A stretch of DNA of 64,000 nucleotides, from positions 1-64,000 of IMG/VR virus record IMGVR_UViG_3300021365_000005. One strand, given 5' to 3'. Both the position numbers and the translations under genes were made by a program. Every line of letters starts with the position of its first letter. Within the stretch, counting starts at the first letter, position 1. Positions 13,683 to 54,303 of this stretch are shown one piece after another. Under the pieces are notes generated by a model. It saw nothing but the letters and a program-made list of their open reading frames with translations. It did not search any database and had not been told where the DNA came from. This stretch comes from a virus.

Positions 13683-14234
13683 TTATTTTGCAAACATACG
13701 CTTGGTTTGATCTGAAGAGCTCGCGGTGTCTTCCGGAGGAACACTTAGGACCTTAGCATATGCTTTGGCATCGCTGATGAACTTAGGCACCCACGACTTT
13801 AATTCCGATTCTAATTTATCCAAGGTATCTACCTTTTTAATTGTTTGGGACATCTTAGTCTTTTTACCTGGTATATGGTTTGCCATTAGGTTGATGCTTT
13901 GAAGCTCTAATTGCCCAAACTTCGATATGTTGATTCCGGCATAGCAAGTGGCTGTAAACATTATTGGGCTTCTTCCAGGGAAAACTGGAGGGAACTTTTT
14001 GGACTCTCCAGTTGTGTTTGCCGGGTCTTCGATATTACGGCCATTTCCAAAGTGGGGTCCTGGGTTGACTACAGAAAGTTTTGATATCCCAGTGTAGCCA
14101 GACTTTTTAGCAGCAGCTAAAACCTTTTGCATTGGGTTGTGCATCATCTTTATGTACTTATCAAGAATTGGGTCAGCTTCTTCTTTGGTGAATTGTATTT
14201 GGCCCTCATTTAGAATTTCAGTTAGCTTAATCAT
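13683..14234 (-). CDS. Unknown protein with capsid-targeting-like N-terminus
   Basis: I do not recognise the 183-residue body. The N-terminus MIKLTEILNE closely matches those of the genes at 43896, 44237 and 44927 and ends in Leu-Asn-Glu, which fits the (L/I)xE rule for cleavage by T4-type prohead protease. T4 internal proteins carry an analogous ten-residue capsid targeting sequence. I infer, without proof, an internal head protein. The rest is basic and soluble, with a Ser-rich C-terminus. It follows the paralogue-bearing gene at 14240 with a 5-nt gap. Confidence 0.6.
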   Translation of the reverse strand: MIKLTEILNEGQIQFTKEEADPILDKYIKMMHNPMQKVLAAAKKSGYTGISKLSVVNPGPHFGNGRNIEDPANTTGESKKFPPVFPGRSPIMFTATCYAGINISKFGQLELQSINLMANHIPGKKTKMSQTIKKVDTLDKLESELKSWVPKFISDAKAYAKVLSVPPEDTASSSDQTKRMFAK

Positions 14235-14239
14235 GTTGA

Positions 14240-14602
14240 CTAAACGTTTCTAAATTTAGGAGCCCCTTTTACAGCCTGGACATTACGAAAGTCTGAGTCT
14301 ACATAGATATAGTACTTTTCACTGCCTTTAGTTAGGTAGTGGACAACAAAGTTTTCGAAGTCTTGGTATGATTTAACACCTGTAAGCTGGTCCTGTGCGA
14401 TTTCACCATCAGTAGCCATTTTATCCAATGCAGATTTTTTACCAGATGGGAAGTTTTGAAATTCCCAACCATTATCGAACATATTCTGAACGAAGTCTTC
14501 AAAATTACTAGCTTTAACTACATCTTGTGGATGTGTGAATGCTGATTCATATAAGTATTTTTCATTCCATTCGCGAATGTTAAATTTTTTAGGTCTTGAC
14601 AT
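14240..14602 (-). CDS. Unknown protein, paralogue of the gene at 43896
   Basis: 120 residues. From THPQDV to the C-terminal AVKGAPKFRN it aligns throughout with the 43896-44237 protein: shared THP(Q/K)D, GWEF, FPS, KS.LDK, DG, Y(L/V)T.G and AVKG.PKFR. The two lie 29 kb apart, so this is an old duplication. Its N-terminus is longer (MSRPKKFNIREWNEK) but still reaches LYES, as in the other copy. Start supported by AAGGAT. Function unknown; if the tag hypothesis holds, both may be internal head proteins. Confidence 0.65.
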   Translation of the reverse strand: MSRPKKFNIREWNEKYLYESAFTHPQDVVKASNFEDFVQNMFDNGWEFQNFPSGKKSALDKMATDGEIAQDQLTGVKSYQDFENFVVHYLTKGSEKYYIYVDSDFRNVQAVKGAPKFRNV

Positions 14603-17185: not shown

Positions 17186-18184
17186 TCACAAAGCCAAAGG
17201 TCTCATGGCATCATAATTCTTACCATACTTTGATTTGGTTGGTAGGCCCATCAGGGCTTTTAGTTCGAACAATAGGGATTTGCCATCTTCAGGGGCAACG
17301 TCAAACAAAAATGAATCGTAGGTATATAGAACCAATTTGGTTTTACGATCTTTTAATAGTGCTTGAATTTTTTCCATAACTTCGATATTTTTTTCGGTCT
17401 CATAGGCTTGGATTAAATAATTAAATAATTTCTGAGGAGACATGTCCTCATAATTCTTTTTATAAAACCTTCTACCAAAGATCGGGGTCTCGATGTAGCC
17501 CCTCTCATTATAATTATCCCATAATTCAAAAATATAGGTCTTAGTCTTCTTAAAGTATTCTATGTTCTCAAACTCCTTCGGTATACCTCCATAGAGCACC
17601 CTAAACGAGATCCTTTTCGACTCTTCATATTCCTCATTGGTCAAGTTATTAGTGTCAAAGTACATTTTTCCAAGATGAGAGTGAACTGAGGGTTCTGAGA
17701 ATTCATAGTCGATAAGTCCAGCTATTAACCTTAGGTGGTAGGCATCATAGTCAAACTCAACTAAAACTCCTGAGTCATGTCTACTAATAAACCTTGCCCT
17801 AGACTTGTCGTCTTTGTTTAATGCAGCATAGTTTACCCCATTGTTGGTGTTTGAAGGTCTACCGGTAAGTGTATACAAGTTGTATTTAGAATGTTCTGTG
17901 CCTGTTGTTGTGAATATGCCGTTATCTTCAATTGCTTCAAATAGCGGAGCAATCCTATCTATATATGTTTCTTCACATATTGCCTTAGGCATACCTGCTA
18001 GCACTCTGGAGTTTATTGCTTCCTGCTCTCTGTGCTTGTTTTTTGGTATAATCATATGAACATCATTTCTATTCCAGTACTTATGACTAAAAAATTTAAA
18101 TATTGGTAGCTGAATGGTTTCCAGATCGGTGGCTTTCCCAGTGTTCAGGTAGCTACGAATTGAAATCTGCTTCAGGATATCCAT
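17186..18184 (-). CDS. Compact family A DNA-polymerase-like protein
   Basis: The C-terminal two-thirds match the Pol I palm and fingers. TLTGRPSN (106-112) is the TGR element. Motif A is FDYDAYHLR with catalytic D145. HSHLGKMYF follows. Motif B is K190xxxF194xxxY198G. NYLIQ (255-259) is the N...Q element, and motif C is YTYDSFLFDV with D290 (HDE changed to YDS). Both catalytic Asp residues survive. The first 90 residues are unlike Pol I, and no 3'-5' exonuclease is present. At 332 residues it is far smaller than Pol I. The motif B Arg equivalent to Pol I R754 is Tyr. Activity as polymerase, terminal transferase or repair enzyme is open. Confidence 0.75.
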   Translation of the reverse strand: MDILKQISIRSYLNTGKATDLETIQLPIFKFFSHKYWNRNDVHMIIPKNKHREQEAINSRVLAGMPKAICEETYIDRIAPLFEAIEDNGIFTTTGTEHSKYNLYTLTGRPSNTNNGVNYAALNKDDKSRARFISRHDSGVLVEFDYDAYHLRLIAGLIDYEFSEPSVHSHLGKMYFDTNNLTNEEYEESKRISFRVLYGGIPKEFENIEYFKKTKTYIFELWDNYNERGYIETPIFGRRFYKKNYEDMSPQKLFNYLIQAYETEKNIEVMEKIQALLKDRKTKLVLYTYDSFLFDVAPEDGKSLLFELKALMGLPTKSKYGKNYDAMRPLAL

Positions 18185-40840: not shown

Positions 40841-42349
40841 TTAAAGGATGTTTGAAACTGTTAGCTTAGCGTAGAAGTCTTTACGAACTACTTTCTTAGC
40901 ATAACGTGTCATTACACCTTTACGTGGAGTAAAGTTGTTTGGATCATAAACCAATGGAGTCATGATTAGTGGGATATATGGAGCGTAAACCGCACCTGTT
41001 TCAAGGAATTGATTTCCTCGGAATCCTATAATCATATCTGCAGAGTTCCAATATGGATTCTTGTAAACCTTATAACGGTTTGCAAAGTTTCCAATTTTTT
41101 CTACACCTGCTGCAAATCCATCTGTATTTCCATCTGTATCTACTGCGAAACTAGGAATAGTTTCAAGAACAGTAGCAACATCAGGAGAACAAACGATAAA
41201 GTTTGCACCACCACGCATTGTCGCTCTGTGGATCTTATTAGATAGCTTTTGGATTTCATATCCAATAGTAGCATTGTGTGTACCTAACGTGTAAGCCCAA
41301 GGACCTGAAGACGTTTGATATCCCTTAGCAGAAGCATTTGTTGGATCACCGACCCAAGTGCCGCTAAAGCCAGCAGAAGAGTGTAGCATTTCAAGGATCT
41401 CTAGATCGATTTCCATTGCAATGTACTCAGATAACATTGAAGTTAATTCTGCTTCAGCATCAATTGAGTGATACGCATTTAAATCTTGTGCAAACTCTGG
41501 AGTCCATACAACTTTTAACTTACGTGTCTTAGCAACTAAAGCCTCTGACTCTAGAGAAACCTCTAGTTCTGGAATATTTAGTTGAGCTTCCTCAAGTTCA
41601 TTTCCAACAGTGTGCTGGGCCTCGAAATCACCACGAAGACCAGCTGCAGTAGATACATCACCATTCTGTTCAAGTTGGTGATAGTGTACTGTTACAACGT
41701 CAGTTGCACCAGGCATACCACTGAATGTTACCTCACCGGTTGCTTGATCAAAAGAAGTAGCAGCGTATTCAGTAGATCCTGATACAGCGTATGCTGAAAG
41801 ACCCATGTCTAAATCTGCCTTTGTAAAGCCACCTGCATTAAGCTTGGTTCCCTTAGCAGCTAGAGTAACTGAAGCAGTTGATTGGGGAGCTCGCATAGAG
41901 TAAGCAGAACGACCAGGACCAGGATAAAGACCTTTTGTAAAGTCAGTTGTAGCTGCCTTTCCGTTTGATCCGAATATTGACTGTGTGTTGTCTACTGGGA
42001 ATTTATCATTACCATATTTGAAATCCAACCAGAAAACTAGACCTGAAGGTAAGTTCATTGGTTGTACCGATACGAAATCTTTTGCTGAGATTTCTGCAAA
42101 GATACGTCTTACTAGGGGAAGAGCTACGCCATTCCACTCATCATTAGCTGTTGCAGTGTTGTTTGCCTCAGAGATAAGTTGTTTAGCTTGGTTTTCCAAA
42201 AGAATAGCAGTGTTATGTTTATCATATTCACCACCAAGTCCTTCTAAAAGTCCAGTCTTTTCCCATTTAGTAACGTAGCCTTGTGTTTCATTGCGTTGTG
42301 TCGCAAATGCTGCCTTAGAATCTTGCAGCAAGTTTGAAATATTTGACAT
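40841..42349 (-). CDS. 23: Major capsid protein, gp23-like
   Basis: 502 residues (T4 gp23 has 521); forms hexamers of the head. MNLPSGLVFWLDFKYG and VVWTPEFAQDLNAYH (with K before it) and the C-terminal RYAKKVVRKDFYAKLTVSNIL are typical of gp23. Candidate gp21 cleavage sites with (L/I)xE are GLLE near residue 37 and QLISE|ANNT near residue 61, near the T4 position (about 65). TAGGAG precedes the start; no separate box, so it is probably co-transcribed with gp22. Confidence 0.97.
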   Translation of the reverse strand: MSNISNLLQDSKAAFATQRNETQGYVTKWEKTGLLEGLGGEYDKHNTAILLENQAKQLISEANNTATANDEWNGVALPLVRRIFAEISAKDFVSVQPMNLPSGLVFWLDFKYGNDKFPVDNTQSIFGSNGKAATTDFTKGLYPGPGRSAYSMRAPQSTASVTLAAKGTKLNAGGFTKADLDMGLSAYAVSGSTEYAATSFDQATGEVTFSGMPGATDVVTVHYHQLEQNGDVSTAAGLRGDFEAQHTVGNELEEAQLNIPELEVSLESEALVAKTRKLKVVWTPEFAQDLNAYHSIDAEAELTSMLSEYIAMEIDLEILEMLHSSAGFSGTWVGDPTNASAKGYQTSSGPWAYTLGTHNATIGYEIQKLSNKIHRATMRGGANFIVCSPDVATVLETIPSFAVDTDGNTDGFAAGVEKIGNFANRYKVYKNPYWNSADMIIGFRGNQFLETGAVYAPYIPLIMTPLVYDPNNFTPRKGVMTRYAKKVVRKDFYAKLTVSNIL

Positions 42350-42370: not shown

Positions 42371-43282
42371 TTAAATTAAACCGGCAAGCTTACGCATGCG
42401 GTCTGAAAAGTTGTTTGATTCTACAATCACCGATTTGTTTGGTGCAGTAGATTTTGTAGATTTTGAAGCTAAGCCTTCAGTCATTGAAGATTTAGTTCCG
42501 CCTTTGCCTACGATTGATTCAGCAAGTGTTGAATAGACCAACTTAACTTCGCGAACTGATGCTGCTCTATCGAACGTTTCAATTACACGTAGCTTTTGTG
42601 ATTCATTCAAGTTATTAGCTCTGAAAAGTTTATTAGAAAATAGTAGCTTAGCATTTAGTAAGTTAACCTCATTGATCTTAGATCTTAGGAACTTAATAGT
42701 AGCATAAGCTTCTTCTAAATCAGATTCACCAACGACTTCTTTATCGTCTTCAGCTTCTTCATCTTCTTCTCTTAGTGCATTAATAACTTCTTCGAGGTCG
42801 AATTCTTCATCGTCCTCTGTTGCATCTTCTGTTACAGGCTCTTCTTCTTCAGCAGCGGCGTCTTCAGCGACAGGGACTTCGTCCTCATCTGTTTCAGTTC
42901 CGGCTTCTAGTTCACGAAGGATAGCTTCTAACTCGAGGTCATCTTCAGATTGTTCACCTTCAGCTTCTGCTGCAACTTCTGCATCATCTTCTTCAGGGGC
43001 CATTTCTGCGTCTTCGTCATACATACCTTCAACCTCTGTATCTTCTTCATCTGCTGTGAGTTCTGCAACGGGATCAGTTTCTTCTTCAGAATCCATTGCC
43101 ATTTCAGCAGTGGGAACTTCTTCTTCTTCTTCGTCTTCGTACTCTTCACGAATTTTAGTAGATAACATAGACTGGAGTTTGGGCGTAAACGCTTCTTCTA
43201 AAGCTAATTTTGCATTTGCAATTGCAGTCTGACGGACTGCCTTAGCATCAGCTATAGCTTCTTTTAATAGGTCTTTTGACAT
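42371..43282 (-). CDS. 22: Prohead core scaffold, gp22-like
   Basis: 303 residues. N-terminus MSKDLLKEAIADAK, then an extended acidic block (residues about 45-195, dozens of D/E) and a basic helical C-terminal part (LRSKINEVNLLNAKLLFSNK, SFSDRMRKLAGLI-like end). T4 gp22 is likewise acidic and is degraded by gp21. It precedes gp23. The acidic block is larger than usual. AAGGAG supports the start. Confidence 0.9.
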   Translation of the reverse strand: MSKDLLKEAIADAKAVRQTAIANAKLALEEAFTPKLQSMLSTKIREEYEDEEEEEVPTAEMAMDSEEETDPVAELTADEEDTEVEGMYDEDAEMAPEEDDAEVAAEAEGEQSEDDLELEAILRELEAGTETDEDEVPVAEDAAAEEEEPVTEDATEDDEEFDLEEVINALREEDEEAEDDKEVVGESDLEEAYATIKFLRSKINEVNLLNAKLLFSNKLFRANNLNESQKLRVIETFDRAASVREVKLVYSTLAESIVGKGGTKSSMTEGLASKSTKSTAPNKSVIVESNNFSDRMRKLAGLI

Positions 43283-43493: not shown

Positions 43494-43820
43494 TTACATT
43501 GCTGTGCCGCCGCCTTGGCTGTCTTCTATAATAGCGGTCCAAATATAACCATCTTCTAGTTTTTTCTGGGCTTTCCATCTAAACTGCTCGTTACGACAAG
43601 CTTCGATTCGGGCTCTTCGTTTAACAGAAGTTGGTTTGGTATATGTTCGGCGATTCTTATACTCGTCGATTTTACCAGCTTCTTTTAGATTTTTTTTAAA
43701 ACTTCTTAATGCACCTTCAAGTGCTGCTGAAGAATCGTCTGGCACCCTTACTCCAGTTCCACTTTTATCTAGTGTGAAGTCACTTCTTTTATAGCGCTTA
43801 CGCTTTTTATAATCTTCCAT
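43494..43820 (-). CDS. rpsU: Ribosomal protein bS21 homologue
   Basis: 108 residues. Residues about 31-75 match the bS21 core: LEGALRSFKKNLKEAGKI, then YKNRRTYTKPTSVKRRARIE. bS21 binds the 30S platform next to the anti-Shine-Dalgarno. The N-terminus (30 residues, KKRKRYKRSDF) and the Trp-bearing C-terminal extension (about 30 residues, RWKAQKKLEDGYIW) go beyond bacterial bS21 (about 70). The gene has a dyad-type promoter and a terminator but no Shine-Dalgarno. Phage bS21 is known from some marine phages. It probably joins host ribosomes to bias translation. Confidence 0.88.
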   Translation of the reverse strand: MEDYKKRKRYKRSDFTLDKSGTGVRVPDDSSAALEGALRSFKKNLKEAGKIDEYKNRRTYTKPTSVKRRARIEACRNEQFRWKAQKKLEDGYIWTAIIEDSQGGGTAM

Positions 43821-43895: not shown

Positions 43896-44237
43896 TTAAA
43901 TAGACCTAAATTTAGGAGATCCTTTTACCGCTTCGTCTTTACCGGAAGCCGTCATCTGAACTAATAAATACCAATCTTCTTTACCATTAGTTACATAATA
44001 TGCAGCCCAATCTTCTCCAGAAAAATAGACATCAGCGCCAGTTATATAGCTATCATTATCTACACTACCATCTGAAGATTTCTTATCTAATAGAGACTTA
44101 TACTTACTTGGAAAGTCTTTGAACTCCCATCCACTTTTTTTAAGGTCCTTAGCAAATGATGGGAAATCGCTCATTTTTGAGATATCTTTGGGATGTGTAT
44201 CTGATGATTCGTATAGGAGATTTTTTAATTTTATCAT
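43896..44237 (-). CDS. Unknown protein with capsid-targeting-like tag; paralogue of 14240 gene
   Basis: 113 residues. The N-terminus MIKLKNLLYE|SS fits an (L/I)xE prohead protease site. The rest aligns with the 14240 protein (THPKD, GWEFKDFPS, SLLDK, AVKGSPKFRS). Start overlaps the stop of the 44237 gene (TAATG). No Shine-Dalgarno, so it probably depends on coupling. I infer internal head protein; function unknown. Confidence 0.65.
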   Translation of the reverse strand: MIKLKNLLYESSDTHPKDISKMSDFPSFAKDLKKSGWEFKDFPSKYKSLLDKKSSDGSVDNDSYITGADVYFSGEDWAAYYVTNGKEDWYLLVQMTASGKDEAVKGSPKFRSI

Positions 44238-44527
44238 TATTTTATTTTTTTATTAAGCCACTTAACACAATATGCAATTAATTCTTTTTTGGCTGGTTTA
44301 ATATCAGATGGTTCAGTCAGTGGACCTCTACCCCAAGTAAGCCAAGCTTCTTCAATAAGTGCTAAACCTGCACCTACATCTCCATCCCCATCAATAGTTT
44401 CAACATACTCTTCGTTTATTGGCTCCGATTCCGTTAGAGGATTCCACTTCATTTTCATCAATTTAGATGATGGTAGAGTCCCTAGTGCAGAATTCTCTTT
44501 TAATATGCCTTTTAATTTTATCATCAT
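44237..44527 (-). CDS. Unknown protein with capsid-targeting-like tag
   Basis: 96 residues from MMIKLKGILKE. The frame extends to an ATG at 44638, but that part overlaps the 44524 gene and has a biased Arg/Lys composition; GGAG lies about five nt before 44527, so I start there. The tag ends Leu-Lys-Glu. The body has an acidic segment (EYVETIDGDGDVGAGLALIE) and a basic tail. Function unknown. Confidence 0.6.
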   Translation of the reverse strand: MMIKLKGILKENSALGTLPSSKLMKMKWNPLTESEPINEEYVETIDGDGDVGAGLALIEEAWLTWGRGPLTEPSDIKPAKKELIAYCVKWLNKKIK

Positions 44528-44670
44528 TTTTCTCCGAAATATTTTGATCCTTTTTTGGGTTGCCCTTTTTTTGTAGTTACGTATACTGGGTCGTCGGGTT
44601 CGAATTGGGCTTCTAATTCTACTAGCTTTCGTTTCCATTCCTGTACGCTAAATGTTTTATTTTTACTCAT
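44524..44670 (-). CDS. Small unknown protein (48 residues)
   Basis: Reads MSKNKTFSVQEWKRKLVELE, then EPDDPVYVTTKKGQP and a basic end (GSKYFGEK). The start overlaps the stop of 44667 (ATGA) and the stop overlaps the start of 44237, placing it in a chain of coupled small genes. AGAGGA lies just before the ATG. Confidence 0.6.
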   Translation of the reverse strand: MSKNKTFSVQEWKRKLVELEAQFEPDDPVYVTTKKGQPKKGSKYFGEK

Positions 44671-44927
44671 AGTCCTCTTTCCGAAATGTAGGCATCAATA
44701 TCTTCAGACCAATCATCCAAGTCAAAGTTTTTATACTTTTTAACACCAGACTTTTTAATGTCTTTTGCAAGAGATGTTAGGTATGCTTTTTTTTCATGAG
44801 GAGTTAAGTTTTCCTTAGCTGCTGCTATGTTAGCAAGCATTAGGACATCTTTCGAGGAAAGAGCTTCTCCAAGTAAAATACTAGAAATTTCCTCTCGGAT
44901 TATTTCTTTTAGTCTTTCCTTATTCAT
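44667..44927 (-). CDS. Small unknown protein with (L/I)xE-rich N-terminus
   Basis: 86 residues. The N-terminus MNKERLKEIIREEISSILLG has several LKE, IIRE and ILLGE elements, similar in spirit to the tags of its neighbours. The rest is Lys-rich helical (TPHEKKAYLTSLAKDIKKSG). Start coupled to the stop of 44927 (TAATG). Function unknown. Confidence 0.55.
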   Translation of the reverse strand: MNKERLKEIIREEISSILLGEALSSKDVLMLANIAAAKENLTPHEKKAYLTSLAKDIKKSGVKKYKNFDLDDWSEDIDAYISERGL

Positions 44928-45661
44928 TATGCCTTGCTCACTGAATCTACGTCAACAGCCATCCAATCATTATTGCCGCCTTTAAAGCCTGCTTTTGCCT
45001 GAACAACTTTCACAGCCTTTTTAATTGCTTCTGCTGGAGTTCTAGCAATTACCTTTGACACACCACCAAAAGCAACGCCATTTACATTTGACTTTGCAAA
45101 CTTAACTTTCCATGTGCCAGAGCCTTCTTTAAGAATAGATCCTAGTTTTGTTGATTCAGTAAATTCTTCTGCATTTTCTTTATCATCCTTATCTACACTT
45201 TTAACTGGGAATTCCTTTCCGTCTACAGTAAACTCGTCTTCGTCATTAGCTATTGCTTTTGCTCTTTCAGCTCCAAATGCATTACCTTCTGAAATCTCAT
45301 AATACTTACCTAGCTTGTGGCCCATGTCTTCATAAACAGACTCAAGTCGCTGTTGAAGTGCGGATAGTTCTCTTGCTGTTTTTTCAAACAACTTAACAGA
45401 AGATGCTACTTCATTCATATCACGCTTAACAGTTACAGAATCAAACCAATCGTCGGTTTCTTGAAGAGCTAGTTGTGTAGCTCCTTCAGACATTTTAACT
45501 ATGGCTTCAACCATTTCTTTAATTTCTTCGGTTCTATAGATTTTAGATCCAAACTCGTTGAATGAAGAAACAGATTTAATAATATCTTGTTTTGCTTCTT
45601 TTGTTAAGTGCCTTGCTAGGCGATCCTTATTATTCTCGTATAGAAGATTTTTTAATTTCAT
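44927..45661 (-). CDS. Unknown protein with capsid-targeting-like tag
   Basis: 244 residues. MKLKNLLYE|NN at the N-terminus nearly equals the tag of the 43896 gene. The middle is helical (ELSALQQRLESVYEDM), and an internal KLGSILKEGS around residue 175 holds a second (L/I)xE site. The C-terminal domain (AFGGVSKVIARTPAEAIKKA) looks compact. It lies next to the protease gene. Best guess: an internal head protein cut by gp21 at least once. Confidence 0.65.
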   Translation of the reverse strand: MKLKNLLYENNKDRLARHLTKEAKQDIIKSVSSFNEFGSKIYRTEEIKEMVEAIVKMSEGATQLALQETDDWFDSVTVKRDMNEVASSVKLFEKTARELSALQQRLESVYEDMGHKLGKYYEISEGNAFGAERAKAIANDEDEFTVDGKEFPVKSVDKDDKENAEEFTESTKLGSILKEGSGTWKVKFAKSNVNGVAFGGVSKVIARTPAEAIKKAVKVVQAKAGFKGGNNDWMAVDVDSVSKA

Positions 45662-45664
45662 GGG

Positions 45665-46297
45665 TTATCTCTTGTTTGGAAGTGCACAGACACACGTTAA
45701 GTCACAAAGGACTTCATTTATTATAGTATTAACCCTATCGTACTTATTTAAGGGTATTAGTTTATTATTTACAGATTCATTAATTGCAGGAGTCATAAAT
45801 GCTCCATGGGTAGATGGGTTGCTTACAAAGTCCCAACACACTAATTCAAAGTCGTCTTGAACTTCTACACCAGCTGCAGATTCTTTTACCGAACCTAGAC
45901 CTCTTGAGCTAATGCCTAATAGGATGCCAGCTTTTAGAAGTTCTTTTAAAATGTTTCCTGATGGTGTGCTAAGTACTTCTACTTCACCCATTAGGTCGTT
46001 ATTTTTCCACCAGATTTTTCTAATGTTATGGGAAACATTGGCCAGGTTAACCACCGAAGAGTCTGGATGGTCTAGTTCACCAAGTGCTCGGTTTTGAGTT
46101 ATAAATTGTTGATCATACTTTTTGGCTTCACGTTCTAGTACTGGACGTGGGTATACCCTGCCGTTTTGATTTTCAGCACCTGCTCTTTGAAGAATTCCCT
46201 TTACAATTACCCTACCACCATTTTTGGCTTCAGACTCATTAATCATTTGGGGTGAAATTTTAAATATATTATAATCAACCAGTAATTGTTTAGTCAT
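45665..46297 (-). CDS. 21: Prohead protease, gp21-like
   Basis: About 210 residues from ATG 46297 (MTKQLLVDYN). An in-frame TTG at 46309 also exists, but GGAG lies 7 nt before 46297. RAGAENQNGRVYPRPVLE, ALGELDHPDSS with the catalytic His, and GISSRGLGSV with the catalytic Ser define gp21-type proteases, herpes-assemblin fold. They cut scaffold, capsid and internal proteins after (L/I)xE. Location between portal-side genes and scaffold is as in T4. Confidence 0.92.
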   Translation of the reverse strand: MTKQLLVDYNIFKISPQMINESEAKNGGRVIVKGILQRAGAENQNGRVYPRPVLEREAKKYDQQFITQNRALGELDHPDSSVVNLANVSHNIRKIWWKNNDLMGEVEVLSTPSGNILKELLKAGILLGISSRGLGSVKESAAGVEVQDDFELVCWDFVSNPSTHGAFMTPAINESVNNKLIPLNKYDRVNTIINEVLCDLTCVCALPNKR

Positions 46298-46440
46298 TAG
46301 TTGCTCCAAGTTGACTTTTTACGATATAGATCAAAAAAGATTTTTGCAACTTCTTTTCTGATTACAGCTCTTATTATTGAAATGTCATCAGGGGTTAAAT
46401 TTTCAGTAATGACTTTGTTGTTGGGCTTTTGGGTTGGCAT
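46297..46440 (-). CDS. Small unknown protein (47 residues) between core-like gene and protease
   Basis: Reads MPTQKPNNKVITENLTPDDI, then ISIIRAVIRKEVAKIFFDLY and KKSTWSN. Start overlaps the stop of 46440 (TAATG), and its stop overlaps the protease start (TAATG). T4 has small core genes (67, 68) in this stretch. Function unknown but the coupling on both sides makes it convincing. Confidence 0.65.
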   Translation of the reverse strand: MPTQKPNNKVITENLTPDDISIIRAVIRKEVAKIFFDLYRKKSTWSN

Positions 46441-46868
46441 TAGAATTTCCTTAATTTTTCTGAAATGCCAGACATTCTTTCTGCTATTTTGTATAGAGTT
46501 TTTCTAGTGCTTTTCCAATACTTTCCTCTATCAACTCCAGTTTCAGTTTTAAGCTTTATATTGTTAGTAAGGATTTTATCAATTTCTTTAAGCTTTCCTG
46601 CAATCTCTTTAATAGCTCTATTTACTTTTTGCTTGGGAGTAGCAGTCTCGTCTTTTTTATATGCTCTATAACTAGTTTCACCTAGCATAATTTTAGAAGC
46701 TTTTACGAATGTAGACTCTTCGACTTTTTCATAGCCATTTTTTTCAACATCCTCATCATCAAGCTCACCAAATGCATAAGGGGTATTATAAGCTTCACCA
46801 GCTCCAGTAGAATTGGTTTCGTCCATAATGTCTTTGATCAATTCTTCAAGTTGGCTATTTAACGACAC
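46440..46868 (-). CDS. Head-region protein, T4 67/68 position
   Basis: 142 residues. GTG start at 46868 with AGGAG seven nt upstream. GEAYNTPYAFG near residue 23 is a phrase common in marine T4-like proteins of this locus as I recall it. A Lys-rich helical C-terminus (KLKEIDKILTNNIKLKTETG, then EKLRKF) follows. Probably a core or scaffold partner; assignment to gp67 or gp68 rests on position. Confidence 0.6.
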   Translation of the reverse strand: MSLNSQLEELIKDIMDETNSTGAGEAYNTPYAFGELDDEDVEKNGYEKVEESTFVKASKIMLGETSYRAYKKDETATPKQKVNRAIKEIAGKLKEIDKILTNNIKLKTETGVDRGKYWKSTRKTLYKIAERMSGISEKLRKF

Positions 46869-51865: not shown

Positions 51866-52423
51866 CTATTTAGATTTTAAATCTTTTTTTATTTTATTAA
51901 CTTGGGTATCAAATTCTTTTTTTAGAGTTTCTTTAGATTTACCTCCCGACCAGTCTTCAATATCTCCTGCTTCAGTAATATAAGACTTGCTATTTATTGT
52001 AGTTAGCCAATCATAATATTCTTCGGTTTTATCCTTTAGCCATGCTTCATTATCAGACTTTGACAGCTCTTTTGCAAATTCTTCAAATTTACCAGCGGCT
52101 TTAAGTTCATTTTCAAATTTATAAACACAATTAAAGCACATGCCAAATTTTTTATACATAGCTTTGTAGGCATGGTGTTGCATTCTAGGATCTCCACACT
52201 TTGGGCACTCCATAGGAACCTTTATAGCTTCTCTAGCAGCATCTAGTTTAGATACTGTTTGTCGAATACCATTTTTTATAGTCCAGGTTTTACCTTTAAT
52301 TTCCCAAGTATCACCTTCTGATCTAACGATTCTTTTTTTACCATAACCAGTTGAAACTTTTGTTTTGTTTGAGGCATTCCCGGAAACCAGGTTCCTCATT
52401 CTTTGTATTCCTTTTTTATCCAT
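51866..52423 (-). CDS. Zinc-ribbon protein upstream of terminase, possible packaging factor
   Basis: 185 residues. GDTWEIKGKTWTIKNGIRQT precedes ECPKCGDPRMQHH, and a second pair GMCFNCVYKFE completes a four-Cys zinc site. The C-terminal part is helical and charged. Its position two genes upstream of terminase is where T4 has gp16, but a zinc ribbon is not a gp16 feature, so a DNA- or protein-binding accessory is as likely. Start overlaps the kinase gene stop (TAATG). Confidence 0.55.
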   Translation of the reverse strand: MDKKGIQRMRNLVSGNASNKTKVSTGYGKKRIVRSEGDTWEIKGKTWTIKNGIRQTVSKLDAAREAIKVPMECPKCGDPRMQHHAYKAMYKKFGMCFNCVYKFENELKAAGKFEEFAKELSKSDNEAWLKDKTEEYYDWLTTINSKSYITEAGDIEDWSGGKSKETLKKEFDTQVNKIKKDLKSK

Positions 52424-54303
52424 TATAACTTTTTACTTTTTTTAATCCACTTAAGGGCTTCTTTGTTTTTTACAGGTTTGTTTAAAAATGACATTACTGC
52501 TGATTTAGTTCCTGGGGGAAGTTTTTCTATCATGTTGCCATCAGCTTCTACTTTTACAAAATTAGAACCAAAGCCACTTTTAAAAGTGTTAAAATTGTCA
52601 TGAACTTTTTGCCAGGTCCTTTCCACTACCTTATCAAGTAATTTTCGTTCAGGCCTATTTGCATTTCGTTGCAAAGCAGTTTCTAGGGTTGTGTTGACAT
52701 AAACCATATAAGTGTCATAACCTAAAGCCTCAATACTTTTCTTTTTTCCAAAAAGGGCATTCGAAGATGCACCAGTTCCATCTATTATAATTCCAAGTTT
52801 ACCATCCAAATAATTTTCTAATTGCTTTTTAGCAATCTTAACGGACTTACCCATAAGCTTACCATCAAGGCTTCGTTCGGCATCTGTCATGGCATCAGAA
52901 TCTGCAGGGATTTTGTGCTTCTTTTTTAAGTACTCAAGGGCTTGATCTAGATTAACAACTTTAAGCCCTGTAGATGTTAGACTTTTTATTTGTTTAGAAG
53001 ATGGGTCGTTGAACAACTTGTTGATAACAGTAGATTTGCCAGAGCCTGGGCCTCCAGCTAAAAATATAGCCTTAAATATGTACTTATCATTGATCCCTTC
53101 TGTAAGAGGCTCTTCGATTTTTTCGCCGTCTGGAGATTTACTAGGAATTTCATCTTTAAAACTTAGAAATTCAATTCCAAGTTTACTTGCTATTTGCTGA
53201 ATGTGTTTTTTCCATAAAGCGTATGCTTGGGATGACTTATAGTCTTTGGGATTTGAAGGGGTGCCTTCGCCGGGAAGTCCTGCTGGAAAGAATGAAGGTG
53301 AGGTCGATGAGTATGGATCTTGAAAGCTTTGGAAATCCCCATCATTCATTATATAGTCTACAACTTTCATTCCTAAACGATCTGCCATTTTGGTAGATGC
53401 ATTTTTGAAGTGAGCTAAGCTATTATAATATGCTGTAGGCCCGTCGTCGACGTCGGCACCAGTTAGGTTTGTGGAATTACTTTCAATTATAAACTTATCC
53501 AACTCTTTCTGGGATATCGTTTCAAGTATGGTAGTAAAGGCTATTTCTTCGCCTAGAGTTAATGGTTCGTTGGGAATTGTGATTTTTGATTCCCCTAAAG
53601 ATTTTAGCTTAAGCTGGTCTTGTATCCATTTCTTTCCAATTGGGTTTTTCAAAGGCTTACTTACTAATCTAGAAACTCCTTTAATTTTATCTGCATGCAT
53701 TTTATTAAAATTGCCAACCTCTGTGTTGTCGATGATAACAAATGAAGATCCAAATAGGGATTGAAACTTGCCCATATTGTTTTGAACATCCATCCAGCTT
53801 TTTTCTAAAAGGTCTGCTGGCAATACTCTGTCTCTTTTAAGGTTTCTTTCTTGGGCAACTTTTAGAGAAGTGTTTACAAAAACCATAGAGCAATCATAAC
53901 CTTGAGCCTCTAATCTTTTTTTACGCTTTGCAATTTTACTGTAGTTTGCTCCAGTGCCATCTAGTACTAGACCTAGCTTTCCATCTTCATACATAGCTTG
54001 TAGTTTTGCTTTCATTCTACGAGCTTTTTGGCGAGCAGCATTGGGATTGTCTGTGTAGTACTTAAAAACTTTATCCGTCATTTTAGATAGGTTCTTAGGA
54101 TTAACCCCAGATTTTTTTAGAAACATTTCAAATGCAGGATCTGAATTAACTTGTTTTAGTCCTGTAGCAGAAGTAGATTTCATTATGTCGGCAACACCAA
54201 ATACTTTAGATGCGGCGTATGATTTTCCAGATCCAGGACCTCCTGCTAGAAAAATGGCCTTTAATATATTTGGATCGTAGACCCCTTCATTAACTGATTT
54301 CAT
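52423..54303 (-). CDS. Double P-loop kinase-like protein
   Basis: 626 residues containing two related kinase domains. Domain 1 has FLAGGPGSGKS (P-loop K27) and LVLDGTGANYSKI; domain 2, from about residue 405, has FLAGGPGSGKST and IIIDGTGASSNAL. Both have later VFVNTS/VYVNTT and an Arg-rich loop, as in zeta-toxin/polynucleotide-kinase-like families. A middle region (about 265-400) of unknown fold separates them. An internal duplication is clear. Substrate unknown: nucleotide, RNA end or protein are all open. AAGGAG and a GATATTTATA box precede. Confidence 0.7.
   Translation of the reverse strand: MKSVNEGVYDPNILKAIFLAGGPGSGKSYAASKVFGVADIMKSTSATGLKQVNSDPAFEMFLKKSGVNPKNLSKMTDKVFKYYTDNPNAARQKARRMKAKLQAMYEDGKLGLVLDGTGANYSKIAKRKKRLEAQGYDCSMVFVNTSLKVAQERNLKRDRVLPADLLEKSWMDVQNNMGKFQSLFGSSFVIIDNTEVGNFNKMHADKIKGVSRLVSKPLKNPIGKKWIQDQLKLKSLGESKITIPNEPLTLGEEIAFTTILETISQKELDKFIIESNSTNLTGADVDDGPTAYYNSLAHFKNASTKMADRLGMKVVDYIMNDGDFQSFQDPYSSTSPSFFPAGLPGEGTPSNPKDYKSSQAYALWKKHIQQIASKLGIEFLSFKDEIPSKSPDGEKIEEPLTEGINDKYIFKAIFLAGGPGSGKSTVINKLFNDPSSKQIKSLTSTGLKVVNLDQALEYLKKKHKIPADSDAMTDAERSLDGKLMGKSVKIAKKQLENYLDGKLGIIIDGTGASSNALFGKKKSIEALGYDTYMVYVNTTLETALQRNANRPERKLLDKVVERTWQKVHDNFNTFKSGFGSNFVKVEADGNMIEKLPPGTKSAVMSFLNKPVKNKEALKWIKKSKKL

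What the first reader, a model, noticed from the sequence alone, without database searches (positions are those of the whole stretch)
43896..45661. Family of capsid-targeting-like N-terminal tags
Genes at 43896, 44237, 44927 and 13683 begin MIKLKNLLYE, MMIKLKGILKE, MKLKNLLYE and MIKLTEILNE. They have unrelated bodies (except the 43896/14240 pair) but the same 9-11 residue start ending (L/I)xE, the cleavage rule of gp21-type protease, which is encoded next door. T4 internal proteins carry an analogous tag. This predicts at least four new internal head proteins, possibly injected with DNA.
Basis: partly seen in the sequence, partly recalled or inferred. Interest (0 to 1): 0.72.

Follow-up and report, generated by a model that had tools for sequence, protein, structure and literature searches.

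The report
Shared head-targeting tags in marine phage
This uncultured T4-like phage and its relatives put the same short, exchangeable 'address label' on the front of dozens of unrelated proteins, ending in the cut site of the phage's own head protease, so from sequence alone one can predict which proteins are loaded into the virus head and probably delivered into the bacterium.

Summary
Four minus-strand genes (43896, 44237, 44927, 13683) start with M(I)KLxx(L/I)LxE, next to a Peptidase_S77 (gp21-type) prohead protease gene. The tag is far commoner at gene starts than at internal methionines or in control phages without gp21. In loci picked only by gp21 or by homology to 44927, 38 of 44 genes starting M(I/L)KL have Glu at position 10. 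Across relatives the tag sits on 69 unrelated body clusters, including ADP-ribosyltransferase, Nudix and zeta-toxin-like kinase domains. Homologous bodies carry different tag classes with the switch at or within a few residues of the Glu (43896 versus 14240 in this window). One peptide has 63 DNA spellings, so the peptide is what is kept. It matches the register of T4's capsid targeting sequence MKTYQEFIAE (hydrophobic 4 and 7, I/L at 8, E at 10). Best reading: removable capsid-targeting propeptides. The count of 'four internal proteins' needs revision: 43896, 13683 and 14240 (other tag class) are likely packaged cargo; 44927 and 44237 look like conserved prohead-core parts. Targeting, cleavage, presence in virions and injection are inferred, not shown.

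The parts
43896..44237 (-). Tagged cargo candidate, 113 aa; leader MIKLKNLLYE|S at 44208-44237; no further L/I-x-E site
   Evidence: no family match; leader unordered in the model
44237..44527 (-). Tagged small protein, 96 aa; leader MMIKLKGILKE|N at 44495-44527; probable prohead core part, homolog of immuto gp069 beside its gp21
   Evidence: six L/I-x-E sites
44524..44670 (-). 48-aa ORF with a class-3-like leader MSKNKTFSVQEWKRKLVELE|A; kept in L002
   Evidence: tag class tentative
44667..44927 (-). 86-aa protein with a class-2-like leader MNKERLKEIIREEISSILLGE|A
   Evidence: tag class tentative
44927..45661 (-). Tagged 244-aa protein; leader MKLKNLLYE|N at 45635-45661; conserved beside gp21, probable prohead core protein
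45665..46297 (-). gp21-type prohead protease (ATG start at 46297)
   Evidence: Pfam Peptidase_S77 8.5e-32; PHROG head maturation protease 4.9e-54
42371..43282 (-). Acidic gp22-like scaffold candidate, by position and composition only
   Evidence: net charge -59, 11 L/I-x-E sites; no family match
40841..42349 (-). Major capsid protein gp23; predicted propeptide cut ISE|A after residue 61
   Evidence: Pfam Gp23 2.3e-77; site conserved as (I/V/L)xE in relatives
13683..14234 (-). Tagged cargo candidate, 183 aa; leader MIKLTEILNE|G at 14205-14234; no further L/I-x-E site
14240..14602 (-). Cargo candidate, 120 aa, body homologous to 43896, class-3 leader MSRPKKFNIREWNEKYLYE|S at 14546-14602
52423..54303 (-). 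Double zeta-toxin-like kinase; starts MKSVNE|GVYDP where relatives have MIKLKDILNE|GVYDP; LTE|G between its two domains

Best explanation
The leaders are removable capsid-targeting propeptides. During prohead assembly the hydrophobic residues of the 9-11-residue leader bind the internal scaffold/core, so the attached protein is enclosed as the shell forms. The gp21-type protease then cuts after the Glu of (L/I/M)-x-E and releases the body. Core-type bodies (44927, 44237, 44667) have more cut sites and are probably degraded with the core; cargo-type bodies (43896, 13683, 14240) have none outside the leader, stay with the DNA and are probably injected. Leaders are exchangeable modules: class 1 (MIKLxxILxE) and class 3 (FxIxEWxxKxLxE) are found swapped on homologous bodies; a class 2 (MKKSELxxIIREE...LxE) is tentative. 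Shown: leaders, protease gene, conservation of the peptide, tag swaps. Inferred: binding, cutting, packaging, injection.
For: Excess at gene starts over internal Met and over gp21-lacking phages. E10 in 38/44 M(I/L)KL starts in loci not chosen by the tag, 2.9% elsewhere. Same 10-residue register as T4 IPII/IPIII MKTYQEFIAE, whose residues 4 and 7 target and 8 and 10 are processed (PMC9026906); gp21 cuts after L/I-x-E. Same leader on 35 (one exact peptide) and 69 (all variants) unrelated body clusters. Tag swaps at the cut site. Insertion directly after the Glu in the 13683 family. 38 of 61 gp21 loci have a tagged gene within 2.6 kb downstream. ADP-ribosyltransferase cargo, as T4 Alt. Peptide kept with 63 DNA spellings. 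Capsid protein of the same phages has (I/V/L)xE at its expected propeptide end.
Against: No virion or cleavage data. The residue after the Glu is varied, with many V, K, N and I. Only 8 of 18 long tagged contigs hold gp21 and gp23; most others look like fragments, but G004 and G013 share none of the window genes tested. 23 of 61 gp21 loci show no recognised leader in the downstream 2.6 kb. Letter identity to the T4 leader is low. Depletion of cut sites in cargo bodies was not specific.
Confidence: 0.85

Rival explanations
1. The leaders are cut by gp21 but only mark prohead core/scaffold components; nothing tagged remains in the virion or is injected.
For: 44927 and 44237 are conserved beside gp21 and have several L/I-x-E sites.
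Against: Most tagged bodies are variable, stand in runs and include enzymes such as ART, Nudix and kinase domains; 43896, 14240 and 13683 have no cut site beyond the leader.
Confidence: 0.1
2. The leader is a targeting or interaction signal for something else (tail, membrane, replication site), and the L-x-E end is not a protease site.
For: Some long tagged contigs lack a recognised gp21; direct cleavage is untested.
Against: Glu at the fixed position, match to the T4 register, switches at the Glu in homologous bodies, absence in three gp21-lacking phages.
Confidence: 0.05
3. A DNA- or RNA-level element (translation enhancer, recombination site) that happens to encode the leader.
For: Runs of tagged genes could arise by recombination at shared starts.
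Against: 63 different DNA spellings of one peptide in 124 copies and no common upstream sequence.
Confidence: 0.02
4. Chance similarity of Lys- and Leu-rich starts in an AT-rich genome.
For: The window has 37% G+C and only about nine residues are shared.
Against: 0/386 internal Met in the window and 0/176 genes in three gp21-lacking phages; one 10-residue leader on 35 body clusters.
Confidence: 0.01

Closest known systems
T4 capsid targeting sequence of internal proteins IPII/IPIII (and leaders of IPI, Alt)
   Same: N-terminal, 10 residues, hydrophobic at 4 and 7, I/L at 8, E at 10, shared by otherwise different proteins, gp21 homolog encoded.
   Different: Consensus letters differ (MIKLKDILNE against MKTYQEFIAE); three leader classes; far more body types than T4's few; found in the Far-T4 side of the group, where the literature searched does not describe it.
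T4 prohead core proteins gp67/gp68/gp22
   Same: 44927 and 44237 are small conserved proteins between gp21 and gp23 with several L/I-x-E sites.
   Different: No sequence match was found in Pfam or PHROGs; gene order differs, as they follow gp21.
phiKZ/SPN3US head protein propeptides (S/A-x-E cut sites)
   Same: Prohead protease of the same superfamily cuts leaders after Glu; two SPN3US paralogs share an identical N-terminal 15 residues (PMC5694885).
   Different: Different protease family (S80) and cut motif; no broad leader family described there.
P1 DarB capsid signal and polyvalent proteins
   Same: An N-terminal packaging signal for an injected effector (PMC9024508); ART domains in predicted virion effectors (PMC5512222).
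   Different: No N-terminal consensus among P1 Dar proteins; polyvalent proteins are large multidomain chains, while these are mostly short single proteins.

Membership tests
T4-type capsid targeting sequence (CTS) | Short N-terminal leader (10-19 residues in T4) shared by otherwise unrelated proteins | tested here: met
   9-11 residues on 69 body clusters
T4-type capsid targeting sequence (CTS) | Hydrophobic residues at 4 and 7, I/L at 8, Glu at 10 | tested here: met
   42/44, 43/44 and 38/44 at positions 7, 8 and 10 in M(I/L)KL genes not chosen by the tag; 44927 has a one-residue shorter form
T4-type capsid targeting sequence (CTS) | Genome encodes a gp21 (S77) protease cutting after L/I-x-E | tested here: met
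   Peptidase_S77 8.5e-32 in the window; 8 of 18 other tagged contigs, many of them fragments
T4-type capsid targeting sequence (CTS) | Leader is sufficient to bring a protein into the prohead | not testable with these tools
   needs a reporter fusion
T4-type capsid targeting sequence (CTS) | Leader is removed in mature virions | not testable with these tools
   needs virion mass spectrometry
T4-type capsid targeting sequence (CTS) | Common descent with the T4 leader MKTYQEFIAE | tested here: inconclusive
   too short; register agrees, letters mostly differ
T4 internal proteins IPI-IPIII | Body homologous to an IP, small and basic | tested here: not met
   No family hits above cut-off for the window's tagged bodies; net charge -1 (43896, 14240) and +8 (13683). 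They may work like IPs but are not filed as IP family members.

The most novel reading that the evidence does not exclude
T4-related phages of a large, mostly uncultured marine group run a general, interchangeable head-address system: several leader classes that dock on the same core, swapped between genes near the protease cut site, used to load dozens of effector families (ADP-ribosyltransferases, zeta-type kinases, Nudix, NMNAT-like polyproteins) that are injected with the DNA.
Probability: 0.5. Interest if true: 0.78.

Novelty: new variant of a known kind. Interest (0 to 1): 0.64.

Why it matters
If right, a simple sequence rule (M(I)KLxxILxE at a gene start, in a phage with a gp21 homolog) turns many unannotated proteins of uncultured T4-like phages into predicted virion-borne effectors, a class otherwise found only by mass spectrometry of purified virions. 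It gives testable candidates for early takeover and counter-defence, and a set of ready leaders for loading proteins into phage heads. It also indicates that the T4 capsid targeting sequence is one case of a wider modular signal.

Tried and rejected
Depletion of L/I-x-E in cargo bodies as a sign of exposure to the protease: apparent (7.7 against 15.3 per 1000 aa) but the reversed motif is lowered as well, so not used. Structure of 43896 (pLDDT 62) gave no PDB match with E below 1 and 13683 (pLDDT 49) was unusable. T4 clamp family PF02916 found nothing anywhere, so uninformative. Homologs of 13683 and of one common cargo family in named phages: none. No paper in the held library contains the leader sequences; preprints and most subscription journals are not covered. 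The invariant E10 in alignment A1 is by construction of the selection, so the set chosen without the tag is relied on instead. Some regex hits are surely false, e.g. MKVKDVIEE on a DNA polymerase A-like frame in L245. Searches failed on input or permission; one search stopped part way on a missing file.

Full report
WHAT IS THERE. The window is part of a 97,456-base IMG/VR record. Its capsid protein is nearest, among named phages, to those of Microcystis phage Mel-JY01, Flavobacterium phage immuto and Rhodothermus phage RM378, i.e. the 'Far-T4' side of the T4 group (RM378 belongs there, PMC4360716). On the minus strand lie a gp21-type prohead protease (45665-46297, Peptidase_S77 8.5e-32), small genes, a very acidic gp22-like protein and gp23. 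The gene at 44237 starts at an internal ATGATG with a GGAG just upstream, as its close relative does.

MORE THAN CHANCE. The leader pattern occurs at 3 of 62 starts and 0 of 386 internal Met in the window; in loci fetched for gp21 alone at 73/1043 starts against 29/5986 internal Met. Duplicates removed: 46/695 against 0/176 in Cellulophaga phages phi14:2 and phi38:1 and crAss001 (p = 3.6e-5). In loci picked by gp21 or by homology to 44927, genes starting M(I/L)KL have Glu at position 10 with a hydrophobic residue at 8 in 38/44, against 2.9% of other genes. All leaders together: 217 distinct proteins, 69 body clusters. 124 copies of the one peptide have 63 DNA spellings, so it is the peptide that is conserved.

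TAGS ARE SWAPPED AT THE CUT SITE. 43896 (MIKLKNLLYE|S) and 14240 (MSRPKKFNIREWNEKYLYE|S) have homologous bodies; the alignment starts at the shared LYES. A homolog of 44927 in L007 carries MKRFDIKDWRSKLNE|S where L013 has MKLSNMINE|S, with 72% identity right after. The kinase body GVYDPGIFKA... follows MIKLKDILNE in L113 and MSQFNDRAWRRSLLEEIHLNE in L011, and MKSVNE in the window. A systematic comparison finds many more pairs; the switch lies at or within a few residues of the Glu in these examples, not in every pair. In the 13683 family the leader is kept and a 16-18-residue insertion lies directly after the Glu. A homolog of 44237 in Flavobacterium phage immuto has a third-class leader. This is what a removable, modular leader predicts.

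FIT TO THE T4 RULE. T4 IPII and IPIII begin MKTYQEFIAE|A (read from NC_000866). In IPIII residues 4 and 7 matter for targeting and 8 and 10 for processing (PMC9026906); gp21 cuts after L/I-x-E. The class-1 leader has hydrophobic residues at 4 and 7, L/I/M/V at 8 and E at 10. The capsid proteins of the same phages have (I/V/L)xE, mostly followed by A or S, where the gp23 propeptide should end.

CARGO OR CORE. 44927 and 44237 are conserved genes close to gp21, with six L/I-x-E sites each, leader included: probably core proteins. 43896, 14240 and 13683 have none beyond the leader: probably retained. In relatives tagged genes stand in runs, seven in a row in L232, and include ART-PolyVal (1.3e-27), Nudix (1.4e-16), zeta-like kinase (1.2e-10) and HAD-like domains and ADPrib_exo_Tox (6.7e-8); one member matches the Alt-like ART family of PHROGs. 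T4 Alt, the packaged and injected ART (PMC5512222), is the obvious parallel. Most cargo bodies match nothing.

MECHANISM. Most likely the leader binds the prohead core, is enclosed with it, and is cut off by gp21 after the Glu during maturation; cargo bodies then stay among the packaged DNA and enter the host with it. The leader, the protease gene, the conservation of the peptide and the swaps are shown. Binding to the core, cutting, packaging and injection are inferred from T4.

LIMITS. No virion data exist here. Only 8 of 18 long tagged contigs contain gp21 and gp23. One more has a relative of the 47766-49559 gene next to TerL and four others share replication genes with the window, so they look like fragments, but two share none of the genes tested. 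23 of 61 gp21 loci show no recognised leader in the 2.6 kb downstream. The residue after the Glu is varied. Classes 2 and 3 are less sharply defined than class 1. A search of the held literature found no report of these leaders, which is not proof of novelty.

Noticed in passing
43494-43820 (-): Ribosomal protein bS21 homolog (Pfam 1.3e-10) between the tagged genes and gp22; Microcystis phage Mel-JY01 has an annotated S21 in the same place.
   Followed up: partly
52423-54303 (-): Two zeta-toxin-like kinase domains in one chain with LTE|G at the domain boundary, a possible internal gp21 site.
   Followed up: partly
L040:557-4432, L044:369-4250: About 1,290-aa chains joining a relative of the kinase and an NMNAT-like domain behind a leader MNKLxxWLVE; possible polyprotein for the head.
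   Followed up: no
L111:14131-14376 (-), i.e. about 97130-97375 of the record, outside the window: A further leader MIKLTNILE|A on an 81-aa ORF near the end of the contig.
   Followed up: no
46440-46868 (-): Conserved gene just before gp21 (STGAG...TPYAF motif), also in relatives and isolates; possible core protein with a class-2-like start.
   Followed up: no
L112-L231 (MIKLKDILNE hits): Ile-7 is ATA in 118 of 124 copies while Ile-2 is mixed; may be an effect of how the capped scan returns rows.
   Followed up: no
17186-18184 (-): A DNA polymerase A-type protein (Pfam 2.2e-11) in a T4-like phage.
   Followed up: no
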